Shown in pieces: positions 11,425-57,479 of a stretch of 64,000 nucleotides of DNA (position 1 is its first letter; each line of letters starts with the position of its first letter). The notes beneath the pieces are model-generated. The model made no database searches, was not told the origin of the DNA, and worked only from the letters and a program-made list of their open reading frames with translations. The DNA comes from Cyrtodaria siliqua (taxonomy: Eukaryota; Mollusca; Bivalvia; Adapedonta; Hiatellidae): the NCBI GenBank assembly GCA_037043455.1, contig JAWPHD010003249.1:62001-126000 (forward strand), written 5' to 3'. The translations under genes and the position numbers were made by a program.

Positions 11425-12320
11425 TCCTTACTTTGTGGCTTTTTAGGATTTTGTTGTTATATTCATAGATACATGATCATCTTTTTATTTTACTTATATG
11501 GCCAATTACTGCTACCTAGTGTGTAAGAGAATATATCCTGGCAATGAGTTCCTTACTTACACTGTCCCAGCAAGGTGTTCATTACTTACACTGTCCCAGC
11601 AAGGAGTTCATTACTTACACAGTCCCAGCAAGGAGTTCCTTACTAACACTGACTCAGCATGAAGATCCTTACGTATACTGTCCCAGCAAGGAGTTCATTA
11701 CTTACACTGTCCCACCAAGGAATTCTTTACTTACACTGTCCCAGAAAGGAGTTCATTACTTACACTGTCCCAGCAAGGAGTTCCTTAATAACACTGACCC
11801 AGCAAGGAGTTCCTTACTTACACTGTCCCAGCAAGGAGTTCATTACTTAGACTGTCCCACCAAGGAGTTTTTTACTTACACTGTCCCAGCAAGGAGTTAT
11901 AAACGTGAGTTCATACCCAATTGCGTTCTGGTAGCCATGCATTCCGCTTGCGTTCATTGTTCGTTCCTTTTGCATTCCGTTTGCGCTCCGTTTGCATTCC
12001 GCTTGTGTTTTTTTTATAAATGCATCAATTTAAAATGCATTCGTTTTATAAATGCATTATTTTATATGTTTTTAAACTGTATTCCTCAACGCGACGGGAG
12101 AAATGGAGAAAATGCACTTGCGTTCGTTCTTGCAGCGTTGTGTGCGTGTGTATTTTCTTTCTTTCATTTGCAAATGTTTATACCCATTATAATACATGGG
12201 CCTAAATAACAGGTTATCGATGACACTTTACACGTATGTCTTTATTTTAAGTATAGTTACGTTTATTGTACTAATTACTACATACAAACATTTCGTGTGG
12301 CATATTTAACATAATAATAC
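11425..12320 (+). repeat. Long dispersed repeat with 29-bp minisatellite core, copy 1
   Basis: Homologous to 41605-42900 on both sides of the minisatellite: left flank 'ttgttgttatattcatagat', right flank with repeated 'attccgtttgcgctccgttt', then 'cacttgcgttcgttc' and 'ataacaggttat'. Probably a single repeat family with an expandable core. No coding domain. Confidence 0.8.
11541..11900 (+). repeat. 29-bp minisatellite, about 12 copies
   Basis: Unit 'actgtcccagcaaggagtt' followed by 'cattacttac' or close variants. Because 29 is not a multiple of three the array rotates through all frames, and none contains a stop, giving a long artefactual frame across it. Confidence 0.92.
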
Positions 12321-12325
12321 ATACT

Positions 12326-12545
12326 GCAAAGGGGATCCCTTAGAAGCAACAAACACAAACAAGAGATAAAAGTAGCAGACTCGGTTTTATTTTGTCTGCT
12401 CATGAGAGGTAATGTGAAGTGCAACACCTCTCACGCCTCCTAACACCGGCGTAAGCGATATTCTACTTAAAGCCACACAAATTGGGATTGATGCTCCCAA
12501 AGGACCAGTAAGTAATAACACTACTGATTTGTAGTCTGGGCGACT
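12326..12545 (-). repeat. Structured repeat family R, single diverged copy
   Basis: Reverse-complement relative of the tandem units at 54751-55548: 'gcaacaaacacaa', 'actcggttttat', 'catgagaggtaat', 'cacgcctcctaacaccgg' and 'aaaggaccagtaa' occur in the same order. It retains a perfect GAGAGGT/ACCTCTC stem and a shortened CAGAC/GTCTG stem. Confidence 0.75.
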
Positions 12546-13026
12546 TACGTATACGTATACGTATTAAGTTAAATGCAAATACAATTAGGACCATACACAC
12601 TCCTTTAAAATCACTGGAATGACGCGTTGTAAAAAAACACATACATCTGGAGTAATTATAACTTACAAATACATACACACTGCATACAAACAGTTTTTAA
12701 ATAAATAGCAAAAGGCGCATAGTATCCATAGATGTACGGTTTTAAAGATGCATGTATTGCCATATATTGTCAATATAAATATCAAAACAATTGAAAATAT
12801 GTTTCATCCCAAAATAAAAATAATGACTTATTCGTCCAGTGCAATTATGGAACATAACCACACATATATTCGCCTGGCTCCCGCCGACAAATAAAAACGT
12901 TAAATAGGTTTTGTTTTAACCATTGTATTGCATTCGTCTCCATCATGAAGAAGTAGTGAGGAATCTATCAATGTAGTATATATGCTTATTTTAGTTGGCG
13001 ATCATTTTGCCGTTGAGTTCCCTTGA
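12546..13026. other. Intergenic downstream of the SLCO pseudogene
   Basis: AT-rich, no gene recognised. This is the 3' flank of the transporter pseudogene. Confidence 0.5.
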
Positions 13027-23650: not shown

Positions 23651-23796
23651 GTTGAATGTGAGTTCGTTGATATAGTAGAAAAGAAGGTATTGCCAATGTA
23701 AGGTACCGTGAGGTATCCTTTAAGGTTTCGATTACATCTGTAGCATACGGTTCGCGTGGAATATACAAAATATGACGTCTTATTTAATAAATACTG

Positions 23797-24225
23797 AAAA
23801 GTGGATCCATTGGAAGCAACAAACACAAACAAGAGATAAAAGTAGCTGTCTCAGTTTTATTGCGTCTGTTCATGAGAGGTAACGTAAAGTGCAACACCTA
23901 TCACGCCTCCTAGCACCGGCTTAAGCGATATTCTACTTTAAAGTCACACATATTAGCATTGATCCAAAGGACCAGAAAGTAATAACACTACTGATTTGTA
24001 ATCGGTACAACTTTTTAAGGCTGCCACACAACACTAATCAAACGCTAGTGTGAATGTCAATAAACACTGAAAAGTGGATTCCTTGAAAGCAGCAAACACA
24101 AACAAGAGATAAAAGTAGCAGTCTCCGTTGTATTGAGTCTGTTCATGAGAGTTAATGTTAAGTGCAACACCAATTACGCCTCCTGACACCGGTTTACGCG
24201 ATATTCTACTTTAAGTTATTTTTTT
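23797..24225 (-). repeat. Structured repeat family R, two tandem units
   Basis: Two ~260-bp head-to-tail units (from 23797 and from ~24057), reverse orientation to 54751-55548. Both contain 'gcaacaaacacaa', 'catgaga' and 'cacgcctcc'; the junction reads through 'aacgctagtgtgaatgt'. The second unit is cut by the SINE at 24233. Confidence 0.75.
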
Positions 24226-33519: not shown

Positions 33520-34207
33520 AGTATAAACGCACTTGTGGTTGTCTGCAGCTAGTTTTACAGTTTCAGACATCAACATAAACGTCTAAACAAAAAATGTCAC
33601 TGTAAGTGACAAATGCCCCTAAAGTATTTGTCTGTATTTCCACAAGAGTTTTGCACGAGACACGTCATCTTTTTATGGTGAACATTTCTGCCAGGTTATA
33701 TAAACATCCCTCAACCCGGCAACAAAGTTATTCACTAGACACAAGTTATATGCCTTCATTCACATACAGGGTCTTCTGACCTCTAAGCGTCACGTTTACG
33801 TTAAAGCTACGGACCTGACTTTTCCCGCATGACACGTCGTCTTGTTCTGGTGAACATATCTATAAACGGATGACAAAGTTATAGACCGGACACGACTAAC
33901 ATGACCTCTATCAAATACAGGGATGTATGACATCTTCTGACCTGCAAGTGTGACCTTGACCTTGAAGATACTGACCTGGACTGTGCTTGCGACACAGTGT
34001 TGTTGTGGTGAACAGTTGTGCGAAGTTATTTGAAAATCTGTCTTTGACTCAGAGTTATTTACCGGACACGATGGTACGGACGAACTGGCGGACGGTGCGA
34101 CTACTATATCCACCCCTTCGGGGGCATCAACAAGAATTCCTTTCTTCGTCATATCCCCTATAATAATGAACGACATGAAATACATCTTTTCAACAATGCT
34201 ATATAAA

Positions 34208-34622
34208 AAAAGAGTATGATAATGGACCTTTGGAAACGGCCGAGCACGACAGATACGATATATTGCAGTCTCGGTTTGATTGAGACTGTTCATGAGCGGT
34301 AGTGAAATATGCTAGCTACCGCTCACGCCCTCTAGCCCCGGGTTGAGCAGAACTCAATATTAATAAAACCAATAGTACACAATTTCAACCATCCCGAAGG
34401 TGGCATGCATACGGCGGTGGACATGGAGTTATTTCCTTCCCCATGTCGTACGGCGTATGGTCCCAGCATCCAATAAATTTAAATGCCCGAAGAGTGAAAT
34501 AAATATAATGGAATTTAGTTGGGAGCAGCGGTTATGAAGCCTGCGTATCACAAGTAACAGCCAAAAGACTAAATCAAAAACCAGGCAACATATCCTATAA
34601 GTGGTTAAACAATACCCAAAGC
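34208..34622. mobile_element. Insertion specific to the right arm, with a family R fragment
   Basis: The left arm reads straight through between 'cttaggttta' and 'tatagcattg' (31163-31180), whereas here ~415 bp intervene. 34258-34345 is a family R fragment whose stems are CAGTCTC/GAGACTG and GAGCGGTAG/CTACCGCTC. The remainder is unidentified. Confidence 0.75.
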
Positions 34623-41720: not shown

Positions 41721-41953
41721 TGGCAAGGAGTTCCTTACTTACACTGTCCCAGCAAGGAGTTCATTACTTACATTGTCCCAGCAAGGAGTTCCTTACTTAC
41801 ACTGTCCCAGCAAGGAGTTCCTTACTTACACTGTCCCAGAAAGGAGTTCATTACTTGCACTGTCCCAGCAAGGAGTTCCTTACTTACACTGTCCCAGCAA
41901 GGAGTTCATTACTTAGACTGTCCCAGCAAGGAGTTCCTTACTTACACTGTCCC
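41721..41953 (+). repeat. 29-bp minisatellite, about 8 copies
   Basis: Same unit as 11541-11900, more homogeneous. Open in all frames. Confidence 0.92.
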
Positions 41954-42612
41954 TTTGGCTGGGATGTCAAAATGGTAAGCGTGAGGTTTGGTGCATCCTA
42001 ATACCTGGTTAAAATCCAATCGGCCTTTTTTGTAACTGTCCGTTCCAAGTCGGTCCCCCTGTTGTGAGCCCTTTTATGTATGTGGTGTCGCATACGTTGA
42101 TGCTATATTTGCATATTAGTGTTATTTGCTTTTATTGCAGGGTTTTGGTTAAATGTTTTTATGAATATTATATTTCCTGTTCGACTTGCATATACCCTTT
42201 GTGATTTTAGAAAACATATCAATTGCAATTTACTAAAACATTATAAACTTGCAATGCATACCAATTGGGTTCAAGTAGCCATGCACTCCGCTTGTGTTCC
42301 AATTTCATTCCGTTTGCGCTCCGTTTGCATTCCGTTTACGTTTTTTATAAATTCATTTTATTAAAATGCATTCTTTTTATAAATCCTTTTTTTAAAAATG
42401 CATTCTTTTTATAAATGCATTTTTTTAATATTTGTTAAACTGTATTCCTGATTGCAACGAAGTGCGTGCATTTAAATGCACAAATCGAAAAAATGCACTT
42501 GCGTTCGTTCCTGCAGCGTTGTGTTTGTGTGTTTTTTTCTTCATTCCATAAGAATATAATACATCGGCGTAAATAACAGGTTATTCATGACACTTTACAG
42601 CCTGTCTTTATT

Positions 42613-54129: not shown

Positions 54130-55677
54130 ATAACCATTGACTATAACAGATATTATAGTCAGTATTATTGTTCGGAAATTTGAGGTTATACAAAATCAAA
54201 GAAAAATATCCTTTATAACGCGTTATGTAAGAATACTTAAATACTGGTTTAAATTATTGAAAACAGATAACATAATATGTATTAGCATTTACATATCGTC
54301 ACTAAAGGATTGTGAAAATGGGTGTACAAATTGGACATCGAATGTAAAAATATGTTAAACGAATATGGTTTTACAAGTGTCTGGAATGACCCAAATTGTG
54401 TTAAAGCTAAATACTTTGTTAATACGTTTAGACAAAGAGTTGTTGATTATTTCATACAACGATGGTTTGTAGATAAGGAATCAAGTGGTGTACTTGAATT
54501 ATATAATAACTGTAAATTGAGTTTTAATTATGAATCATACCTTGATATTGTACCATGTAATCCCAGACCATATTTAACAACATTCAGAATATCAGCACAT
54601 TCGTTAAGAATACAGACCGGTAGATACTCTACTAATAGAATACCTAGAAATGAAAAATATTGTCAATGCTGTCACAGTATTGATTTGGAAAATGAATACC
54701 ATTTTGTTTTGATTTATTCTTGTTACAGAAGAATTTGGACAATTTATATTCACACTAGCGTTCGTTTAGTGCAGTATGGCGGCTGTAAAAAGTCTCCCCG
54801 TGCTACGAATCAATAACGAGCTCAATATGGGTGGCTTTGAAGAAGAATACAGCTTAAGCCGGTGCTAGGGGGCTTGAGAAGTGCTGTTTCTTTCATTACT
54901 TCTCATGAACAGACTCAATAAAACCGAGTCTGCTGCTTTATTCTCTTAATTGTGTTTGTTGCTCTCAAAGGATCACCTTTATCAGGATTTATTAACATTC
55001 ACACTAGCGTTCGTTTAGAGCAGTGTGGCGGCTGTAAAAAGTATCCCCGTGCTACGAATCAGTAGTGTTATTTTTTACTGGTCCTTTCGGACCAACGAGC
55101 CCAATATGGGTGGCTTTGAAGTTGAATACCGTTTAAGCCGGTGCTAGGGGGCGTGAGAAGTGTTGCTTATTTCATTACTTCTCATGAACAGACTCAATAA
55201 ATCCGAGTCTGCTGCTTTATTCTTTTAATTGTGTTTGTTGCTCTCAAAGGATCACCTTTATCAGTATTTGTTAACATTCAAACTAGCGTTCGTTTAGTGC
55301 AGTGTGGCGGCTGTAAAAAGTCTCCCCGTGCTACGAATCAGTAGTGTTATTTTTTACTGGTCCTTTGGGACCAACGAGCCCAATATGGGTGGCTTTGAAG
55401 TAGAATACCGCTTAAGCTGGTGCTAGGGGGCGTGATCAGTGTTGCTTCTTTCATTACTTCTCATGAACAGACTCAATAAAACCGAGTCTGCTGCTTTATT
55501 CTATCAATTGTGTTTGTTGCTCTCAAAGGATCACCTTTATCAGTATATAATAATAGACCTAGTATATTTAAATTCTTAGAATTACTGCACACACAGGATA
55601 AGAATATTGTTATAAAGTTAGCGCAGTATATTAGTACAGCTTTAGCTGTAAGTAATACAATCTTGATTTATTAAACA
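54130..55677 (+). pseudogene. LINE ORF2 C-terminus split by a repeat array
   Basis: Plus strand. 54130-54745 reads through YVRILKYWFKLLKTDN, then NMLNEYGFTSVW, TFRISAHSLRIQTGRYS and the end motif CQCCHSIDLENEYHF. It breaks off after RRIWTIY at ~54748, and the sequence resumes at ~55546 with NRPSIFKFLELL and IKLAQYISTALAVSN to a TAA at 55675-55677. The intervening ~800 bp are three tandem units of family R. So the repeat array inserted into an existing LINE. RT and endonuclease parts are missing. Confidence 0.85.
54751..55548 (+). repeat. Structured repeat family R, three tandem units
   Basis: Units at 54751-54999 (249 bp), 55000-55278 (279 bp) and 55279-55548 (~270 bp); the first lacks ~30 bp present in the others. 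Each has 'cactagcgttcgtttag', 'ggcggctgtaaaaagt', 'ccccgtgctacgaatca', 'gcttaagc', a stem around 'tcattacttctcatg' and a hairpin cagactc-aataaaacc-gagtctg with AATAAA in the loop. Units 2 and 3 also have a 'tggtccttt.ggacca' hairpin. No frame, no LTR hallmarks. Confidence 0.9.
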
Positions 55678-55809: not shown

Positions 55810-57479
55810 CTCAGTTGCAAAAGAAAGTGAACACTGAGTTTTGTTTAGATTTAATTACAAAATGAATATGCCATGCTTGGTACCAAAGTTTCTATCATTC
55901 CAGTGCTAATATCATGTTGTCATTTGTTTTTAGCTATACTGACCAAGGGCCAGCAGAGCTTATGGGATGGGAGTTGTACGTCGTCCGTCGTCCGTCGTCC
56001 GTCCGTTAACTTTTAACTATCGTTAAGACGATAGGGCCTTCATTTAAAATCTGATCTTTACCAAACTTTAAATATAGTTAATATCAATGAAAGCTCAGAT
56101 AAGTTCGAAAGCCAGCCAGATCGGACCAGTAACAGCGGAGTTATGGCCCTTGATTTAGTTAAAAATGCTATATTTTGCCTTGTTAAGACGATAGGGCCTT
56201 CATTTTGCATCCGATCTTTACGAAACTTTACCAGATTGTTAATATTAATGATAGCTCGAACAAGTTTGAAAAGCGGCAGATCAGACTAGTAACAGCGGAG
56301 TTATGGCCCTTGATTTAGTTAAAAATGATATATTTTGCCTCGTTAAGACGATAGGGCTTTCATTTTTTATCCAATCTTTACCAAACTTTACCAGATTGGT
56401 AATATTAACGAAAGCTCGGACAACTTCTAAAACCGACTAGATCGGAAAAGTACCAGCGGAGTTATGACCCTTGCTTTAGTTGAAAATGCTATATTTTGCC
56501 TCATTAAGACGATAAGGCGTTCATTTTTTTCCGATCTTTACCAACCTTTACCAGATTGTTAATGTCAATGATAGCTCGGACAAGTACAAAAACCAGCCAG
56601 AGCAAACCAGTAAAGCGGAGTTATGGCCCTTGATTTAGTTAAAAATGCTATATTTTGCTTCGTTAAGACGATAGGGCCTCCAATTTTTATCTGATCTTTA
56701 CCAAACTTTACCAGATTGCTAGTGTCAATAAAGTCTCAGATAAGTTCGAAAACCAACCAGATCAAAACAGTAACAGCGGAGTTATGGCCCTTGATTTAGT
56801 TAAAAATTCTATATTTTGCCTCGTTAAGACTATAGGGCCTTCCTTGCTCATCTGATCTTTACCAAACTTTACCAGATTGCTAGTGTCAATAAAGTCTCAG
56901 ATAAGTTCGAAAACCAACCAGATCAAAACAGTAACAGCGGAGTTATGGCCCTTGATTTAGTTAAAAATTCTATATTTTGCCTCGTTAAGACTATAGGGCC
57001 TTCCTTGCTCATCTGACCTTTACCAAACTTTAACAGATTGTTAATGTCAATGAAAGCTCGGAAAAGTTCGAAAACCAGTCAAATCGGACCAGTAACAGCG
57101 GAGTTATGGCCCTTAATTTCCTTCATTTAGTATCTGATCTTTACCAAACTTTACCAGATTTTTTTACTTTTTTATCTTTTATTTATATTTCTTTATTATT
57201 ATTTTTTTTTTTTTTTTTTTTCTTTTTTGTGATTTTTATTATCTCTACTGGCCAGGTTCGAAAAACAGCCAGATCGGACCTAATGGCAGAGTTATGGCTG
57301 TTGATTTAGGTAAAAATGATATATTATGCCTCTTTAAGACGATAGTCACTCGCTTCATTGATGTTATAAGAGCAAGCCATATTGTTTAATAGGTCAAATC
57401 ATTAAGGGACTGTCGCTTGATAAAGAGGACAGGGTGTAAAGTAAAAATGTTAAAGTGTCCAGTTTCTTTTGCGACTGAG
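55810..57479. mobile_element. CTCAG MITE expanded by a minisatellite (1670 bp)
   Basis: Ends ctcagttgcaaaagaaagtg and, inverted, cagtttcttttgcgactgag, flanked by TA at 55808-55809 and 57480-57481. The outer ~140 bp (left) and ~100 bp (right) match the 241-bp copy at 44648-44888 in reverse. Between them are ~1.4 kb of 160-bp tandem repeats. Confidence 0.9.
56010..57350 (+). repeat. ~160-bp minisatellite inside the MITE
   Basis: About eight units, each with 'gttaagacgatagggcctt', 'gatctttaccaaactttacc', 'gaaaaccagccagatcgga' and 'agcggagttatggcccttga'. Two adjacent units (from 56822 and 56984) are nearly identical over 162 bp. A poly-T run breaks the array at 57186-57222. Preceded by (cgtc)n at 55979-56003. 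Confidence 0.93.

What the first reader, a model, noticed from the sequence alone, without database searches (positions are those of the whole stretch)
54751..55548. Repeat family R has two stem-loops supported by compensatory base changes
Seen: stem 1 reads CAGACTC/GAGTCTG at 54.9-55.5 kb but CAGTCTC/GAGACTG at 34.26 kb, an A-T pair swapped to T-A. Stem 2 reads GAGAAGT/ACTTCTC at 54.9 kb, GAGAGGT/ACCTCTC at 12.4 kb and GAGCGGT/ACCGCTC at 34.3 kb, two positions changed on both sides. AATAAA sits in the loop of stem 1. Not all copies keep both stems (24.1 kb and the third unit at 55.4 kb are degraded). Inference: selection at RNA or single-strand level during spread, so a structured non-coding mobile RNA rather than a plain satellite.
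Basis: partly seen in the sequence, partly recalled or inferred. Interest (0 to 1): 0.8.

Follow-up and report, generated by a model that had tools for sequence, protein, structure and literature searches.

The report
Retrozyme-like mobile RNA without hammerhead
A very abundant 280-base non-coding repeat in this animal genome seems to spread through a folded RNA that is copied as a circle or chain of units, like known retrozymes, yet no hammerhead ribozyme was found in it.

Summary
The stems, the compensatory changes and the array are real. The array (54748 to about 55550, period 279) belongs to a large superfamily: the two-stem pattern occurs 55,856 times in the 2.88-Gb genome at up to two mismatches, reversed control 0. 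Over 16 real copies 93% of stem cells pair and the covariation score beats 500 of 500 shuffles; the changes separate families, so independent events are few. The R unit consensus folds on the + strand at z = -5.8, and pairing between two families is kept better than chance on that strand. Of 78 arrays, 68 end at one 3' site; start points are uniform round the unit (68 insertions, KS p = 0.17); sizes run from 0.4 to 11.8 units. A third family with 628-bp units keeps the same tail-to-head junction. This fits reverse transcription from a fixed tail on a circular or multimeric RNA, as proposed for metazoan retrozymes. No hammerhead was found in the units examined. Best reading: a retrozyme-like, hammerhead-less retroelement superfamily. 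Transcription, circular RNA and ribozyme activity are inferred, not shown.

The parts
54748..55553 (+). R array: three 279-bp units (about 54748-54993 with a 31-bp deletion, 54994-55272, 55273-55546), starting at unit position 4
55154..55184 (+). Stem 2 of the middle unit: TGAGAAGT 55154-55161 with ACTTCTCA 55177-55184
   Evidence: read; counted over families
55189..55211 (+). Stem 1 of the middle unit: CAGACTC 55189-55195 with GAGTCTG 55205-55211
   Evidence: read; counted over families
55079..55254 (+). Head-tail panhandle of the middle unit: 55079-55100 against 55233-55254, enclosing both stems (21 of 22 pairs in the R consensus)
55255..55276 (+). Tail CCTTTATCAGTATTTGTT running into the head AACATTC.. 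of the next unit; in other copies the insertion ends at CAGTATTTATT
23784..24214 (-). R-related insertion of about 1.5 units, degraded stems, intact 3' end
12312..12546 (-). w12-family insertion of about 0.8 unit
34200..34460 (-). Part of a w34-family copy (5' limit not determined); w34 units are about 616-628 bp where tandem
54316..54750 (+). Open frame interrupted by the array (reads like the end of a LINE reverse-transcriptase ORF; identity recalled, not searched); it resumes at 55543 as VYNNRPSIFKFLELL

Best explanation
R, w12 and w34 are a superfamily of non-coding, non-autonomous retroelements. Their unit is a compact folded + strand RNA: a head domain, a head-tail panhandle that encloses the two covarying hairpins, and a tail that in R and w12 ends in CAGUAUUUAUU. 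A reverse transcriptase supplied by another element starts at the fixed tail end and copies a template that offers no unit-length 5' end: most likely a circular monomer RNA copied round and round, otherwise a long multimeric transcript. It stops at a random point, which leaves arrays with a constant 3' end, a random 5' end and 0.4 to about 12 units. The two hairpins are probably part of the structure that processes the RNA or recruits the enzyme. Shown from sequence: structure, covariation, strand bias, end geometry, shared junction. Inferred: transcription, circularity, the enzyme, any cleavage activity.
For: 3' end within about 6 nt of the unit end in 68 of 78 arrays, 5' end near the unit start in 11 of 78. 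Start points of 68 insertions uniform on the circle, KS p = 0.17. Sizes 0.4-11.8 units; with the single-unit w12 query 16 of 30 exceed one unit. Array interrupts an open frame that resumes behind it. Units of an array share fixed variants: 69 in 28 arrays against 1.3 +/- 1.5 for random composition; in six arrays (L001, L002, L013, L021, L038, L044) the other variants are all private to one unit. Tail-to-head junction homologous in w34, about 70% over 234 bp. R consensus + strand z = -5.82 (0/200), - strand -2.84 (1/200), w12 -3.85. w12 structure tested on R: 2 broken pairs against 10.1, P = 0.0002; R structure on w12: 7 against 12.6, P = 0.010. Stems covary.
Against: No transcript or circular RNA data. 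No excess of target-site duplications beyond weak short matches (13 of 71 with 6 nt or more, about 8.2 expected; several fall in the tail) and no target consensus, unlike ordinary LINE insertion. No partner element with the same tail was recognised in the fetched loci. Several arrays have higher-order repeats (L041, L014, L017, L019, L022), and partly shared variants are more numerous than in random composition (134 against 93), so some amplification is at DNA level. The decayed window unit itself folds no better on + (z -2.93) than on - (-3.45). Many R units have lost a stem-2 pair.
Confidence: 0.6

Rival explanations
1. Linear multimer model: genomic arrays are transcribed through and the linear multimeric RNA is reverse transcribed from a tail with 5' truncation; no RNA circle is needed. 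Arrays look homogeneous because recent, still homogeneous arrays are the parents.
For: Gives the same end geometry; arrays of up to about 12 units exist as sources.
Against: Array-wide fixed variants (69 against 1.3) and all-private remaining variants in six arrays ask for homogeneous parents each time, and 5' truncation should shorten arrays every generation. Many arrays are heterogeneous, which would be inherited.
Confidence: 0.25
2. Rolling-circle DNA transposition (Helitron, Helentron or HINE kind, or one-ended replication of a DNA circle), as described for oyster arrays.
For: No clear target duplication, hairpins near one end, short dispersed arrays as in oyster HINE elements (PMC7492417, passages).
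Against: The other end is random (uniform starts), there are no constant flanking modules on either side, no significant target dinucleotide, and pairing is kept on one strand with G-U pairs.
Confidence: 0.08
3. Plain satellite DNA spread by unequal exchange or extrachromosomal DNA circles; the stems are chance or shared by descent.
For: Higher-order repeats show DNA-level amplification in several arrays; the compensatory changes are few and family-wide.
Against: One fixed end in 68 of 78 arrays, interruption of another open frame, covariation and strand-specific structure.
Confidence: 0.05

Closest known systems
Metazoan non-LTR retrozymes (Cervera and de la Pena 2020, PMC7229834: first part of the text, passages, sections 14 and 17; review PMC7761336, passages only)
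   Same: Dispersed short tandem arrays of about 150-450 bp units (350-390 bp in Mytilus), from dimers to large multimers, low G+C, no LTR, no protein, highly self-paired RNA; the proposed model is tandem cDNA from a circular RNA by a foreign reverse transcriptase.
   Different: The hammerhead that defines them was not found in R, w12 or w34 units; w34 units are about 628 bp; here the 3' end of insertions is fixed and a two-hairpin domain is conserved instead. RNA circles were shown for retrozymes, not for R.
SINEs with a highly conserved central domain (recalled; one search gave a listing only)
   Same: A conserved domain shared between families with partly different bodies, constant 3' end, 5' truncation.
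   Different: No tRNA found in the one locus tested (L002); insertions often longer than one unit; the families also share the tail-head junction.
Oyster Helentron-associated HINE elements with satellite-like arrays (PMC7492417, passages)
   Same: Short satellite-like arrays dispersed through a mollusc genome; palindrome near the 3' side; no target duplication.
   Different: HINE arrays are framed by constant left and right modules; R arrays have unique flanks directly and random left ends.
Penelope-like elements (from the papers above and recall)
   Same: Tandem copies, 5' truncation; proposed to supply the enzyme for retrozymes.
   Different: R has no protein gene; no Penelope element was searched for here.

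Membership tests
Metazoan non-LTR retrozyme | Type I hammerhead ribozyme in each unit | tested here: not met
   Rfam: window at gathering score; L002, L006 and L055, L075, L072 at E <= 10: no hammerhead. Core pattern CTGANGA..GAAA absent from doubled R, w12 and w34 units on both strands. A divergent or unknown ribozyme is not excluded.
[quoted passage not shown]
   Units 277-279 bp in arrays of 0.4-11.8 units; w34 tandem spacing 616-628 bp.
Metazoan non-LTR retrozyme | Abundant circular RNA of unit length | not testable with these tools
   No RNA data.
Metazoan non-LTR retrozyme | Highly self-paired unit RNA | tested here: met
   R consensus z = -5.82, w12 -3.85, one w34 unit -3.31 with 20 shuffles.
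SINE mobilised by a LINE | Target-site duplication | tested here: not met
   71 insertions, match lengths close to permuted control: 13 with 6 nt or more against about 8.2 expected; gapped test: only L027, inside another tandem repeat, stands far out.
SINE mobilised by a LINE | tRNA-, 7SL- or 5S-derived head with Pol III promoter | tested here: inconclusive
   No tRNA by ARAGORN in L002 and no Rfam match in the head; promoter boxes not tested experimentally.
Helentron/HINE | Constant left and right modules with subterminal inverted repeats | tested here: not met
   Unique sequence directly at both ends of arrays; left end variable.

The most novel reading that the evidence does not exclude
The parts that the three families keep (two covarying hairpins with their UGAA linker and AAUMAAACC loop, and the head GUGCAGUGUGGCGGC..GUCUCCCCG) are an undescribed self-cleaving or self-circularising RNA that takes the place of the hammerhead in a superfamily of some 56,000 copies spread by rolling-circle reverse transcription of RNA circles.
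Probability: 0.25. Interest if true: 0.92.

Novelty: new variant of a known kind. Interest (0 to 1): 0.72.

Why it matters
If R is copied from RNA circles without a hammerhead, then either another ribozyme fold or a host pathway makes circles for retroelements in animals. It would also explain how short satellite-like arrays scatter through animal genomes. The geometry used here (fixed 3' end, 5' ends uniform on a circle, variants fixed per array) is a genomic test for circular or multimeric RNA templates that can be run on any assembly.

Tried and rejected
Rfam on the window at gathering score: 0 matches. Rfam at E <= 10 on five loci: no ribozyme; weak chance-level hits only, of which ncS16 in an R tail (18.8 bits, cut-off 48) and DnaX in L072 (16.6 bits, cut-off 35). 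Hammerhead and HDV-like pattern scans: none except one implausible HDV-like candidate on the minus strand of w34; one hammerhead-like core pattern in L002 lies outside the array and is at chance level. tRNA in L002: none. Target duplications; gapped scores of L016 (14.5) and L023 (16.0) slightly exceed the control maximum of 14 but their matches are 28-44 nt off the junctions. Target consensus: +4 A p = 0.0019 among 35 positions, not significant after correction. A first KS test (p = 0.0001) was wrong because the units were one base too long or short; corrected. 'Few partly shared variants' does not discriminate (14 of 28 arrays; random composition 25.8 of 28); the array-fixed count does. R-w12 consensus covariation alone is not significant (1 both-changed pair, P = 0.32). 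IMG/VR pattern scan: 0. Six motif strings in the paper library: 0 papers. Listings for tandem, bivalve, retrozyme and circular-RNA terms (top 3-15 of each listed) showed no title on a hammerhead-less retrozyme; PMC11721086, which contains 'lacking ribozyme', was not opened. Repbase, Dfam and subscription papers are not held, so the repeat may already be named there. Whole-genome hammerhead search uninformative: 73 of 281,730 candidates scored and nothing rang in the controls either.

Dropped before counts: likely duplicate loci L025, L026 and L061 (not); arrays under 100 bp or without 100-bp flanks; searches also need the unit 3' end, which 10 of 78 arrays lack. One search used a three-unit query and scored 40 of 7589 candidates, so R array sizes are biased upwards; one search used a single partial unit and scored 40 of 6494.

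Full report
What is there. The finding is a tandem array of a 279-bp repeat, R, at 54748 to about 55550 on the + strand. The window lies in a 2.88-Gb assembly held without a name; that it is a bivalve is my guess from the look of its repeats and was not tested. The array interrupts an open frame: the left side ends ..CYRRIWTIYI and the right side goes on as VYNNRPSIFKFLELL. It reads like the end of a LINE reverse-transcriptase ORF (recalled, not searched). So the array arrived as an insertion.

Abundance and families. The pattern CTCATGAACAGWCTCAATNAAACCGAGWCTG with up to two mismatches occurs 28212 + 27644 times, reversed control 0 + 0. I compared 40 R arrays found with the whole array as query and 30 loci found with the 12.4-kb copy as query, which belong to a sister family, w12, with 277-bp units. 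The 34.26-kb copy belongs to a third family, w34; four pairs of w34-type sites in the first 100 listed lie 616-628 bp apart. One such dimer was fetched (L075). From the domain through the tail into the next unit's head it is about 70% identical to R over 234 aligned bp. The three families therefore share the order domain, tail, head across the unit junction; w34, seen here in one dimer, has extra sequence between head and domain.

Covariation of the two stems. On 16 real copies of the three families and older relatives, 93.0% of 256 cells form standard pairs (shuffles 85.7 +/- 1.1, 0/500), 17 cells changed on both sides (6.1 +/- 1.6, 0/500) and the score is 0.274 against 0.146 (0/500). Five pairs changed on both sides against 3.2 expected is weaker (23/500). 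Three are in stem 2 (G-C/A-U, A-U/C-G, G-C/A-U) and two in stem 1 (A-U/U-A, G-C/A-U); two of the five rest on a single copy each. Copies inherit such changes, so independent events are few. Genome-wide the stem-1 swap is essentially a difference between R/w12 and w34: of the first 100 listed sites 42 are A-T, 53 T-A, 4 A-A and 1 T-T (counted by eye), and of 100 listed of the 277 sites with G or C there 3 are G-C or C-G. In stem 2, of 100 listed of 617 sites with G or T at one position, 33 are G-T, 31 T-G, 24 T-T, 5 T-A, 3 G-C, 3 G-G and 1 G-A. Many R units have lost one stem-2 pair, and the 5' arm of stem 2 is the most variable ten-base block of the unit.

Structure of the whole unit. The R consensus folds at -95.5 kcal/mol, z = -5.82 (0 of 200 shuffles); its reverse complement gives -2.84 (1 of 200). 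w12 gives -3.85 and a single w34 unit -3.31 with 20 shuffles. The window copy itself gives -2.93 on + and -3.45 on -, so the strand difference shows in the consensus, not in this decayed copy. The fold is a head-tail panhandle that encloses the two hairpins; R has 21 of 22 head-tail pairs, w34 20 and w12 19, while 400 base shuffles of the R head reached 20 at most. A structure computed from w12 alone and tested on R has 2 broken pairs against 10.1 expected (P = 0.0002); from R tested on w12, 7 against 12.6 (P = 0.010). On the minus strand P is 0.41 and 0.048, and the fraction of changed pairs that is kept equals the null. A 60-pair consensus over ten copies of the three families has ten pairs changed on both sides (3.3 +/- 1.4 expected, 0/500), among them a position with C-G, U-A and G-C in the three families. 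That structure was derived from the same sequences, and w34 is one row there. An R-w12 consensus comparison alone has one both-changed pair (P = 0.32).

How copies insert. Of 78 arrays of at least 100 bp with both flanks, 68 end within about 6 nt of the unit end, CAGTATTTATT, and 11 begin near the unit start. Of 12 insertions that BLAST starts at unit positions 1-4, seven carry a further 5-22 nt of the preceding unit. Corrected start points of 68 insertions are uniform round the unit (KS p = 0.17; 71 with duplicates p = 0.28). Sizes run from 0.4 to 11.8 units; in w12, found with a single partial unit as query, 16 of 30 exceed one unit and 7 are shorter. Target duplications: 13 of 71 insertions show a match of 6 nt or more where about 8.2 are expected from permuted flanks, longest 9 in both, several within the tail. 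No significant target consensus in 64 insertions.

What the template was. A unit-length linear RNA cannot give 1.3 or 5.6 units, and a linear RNA cut at the unit boundary should leave many insertions beginning there (5 of 68 within 5 nt, 2.7 expected). Units of one array share variants fixed in all of them: 69 over 28 arrays against 1.3 +/- 1.5 for arrays made of random units, which argues against jumping among a pool of RNAs. In six arrays the remaining variants are all private to one unit, as expected if all units were copied from one monomer. Other arrays show higher-order repeats (L041 repeats every four units; also L014, L017, L019, L022), and partly shared variants exceed random composition (134 against 93), so arrays are also reshaped at the DNA level. 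I prefer rolling-circle reverse transcription of a monomer RNA circle; a transcript of a young homogeneous array is the main rival.

Comparison with known systems. This is the life cycle proposed for metazoan retrozymes, in which a primed circular RNA yields tandem cDNA copies (PMC7229834, sections 14 and 17). The hammerhead that defines them was looked for in R, w12 and w34 units and not found; the whole-genome hammerhead search was uninformative. So R works like a retrozyme but is not filed as one. Oyster HINE elements also carry short arrays (PMC7492417, passages) but have constant flanking modules, not seen here. The conserved two-hairpin domain and the conserved head are the natural candidates for whatever processes the RNA; nothing here tests activity.

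Noticed in passing
window 11541-12066 and 41723-42428: Two places carry the same 29-bp minisatellite (GCAAGGAGTTC.TTACTTACACTGTCCCA) followed by similar TTTATAAATGCATT-type repeats: probably two copies of another dispersed element with an internal array.
   Followed up: no
window 56020-57119: A 161-bp tandem repeat, about 7 copies (also read as 320 bp), 0.5 kb downstream of the R array.
   Followed up: no
R unit positions 161-170 (5' arm of stem 2): Most variable ten-base block of the R unit (6.9% mean over 159 units; position 166 is 42% non-consensus, mainly A/G), while the partner arm at 181-190 has 2.5%. The asymmetry is unexplained.
   Followed up: partly
L022 and L026: Two contigs hold the same eight-unit array with the same flanks (units 0-0.4% apart), probably haplotypes or a duplication.
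   Followed up: no
L055:2536-2608 and 2783-2855: Two tRNA-like stretches about 247 bp apart, just below the Rfam cut-off (27.5 and 22.7 bits, cut-off 29): perhaps a tRNA-derived SINE.
   Followed up: no
L041, L014, L017, L019, L022: Higher-order repeats inside R arrays, for instance identical units four apart in L041.
   Followed up: partly
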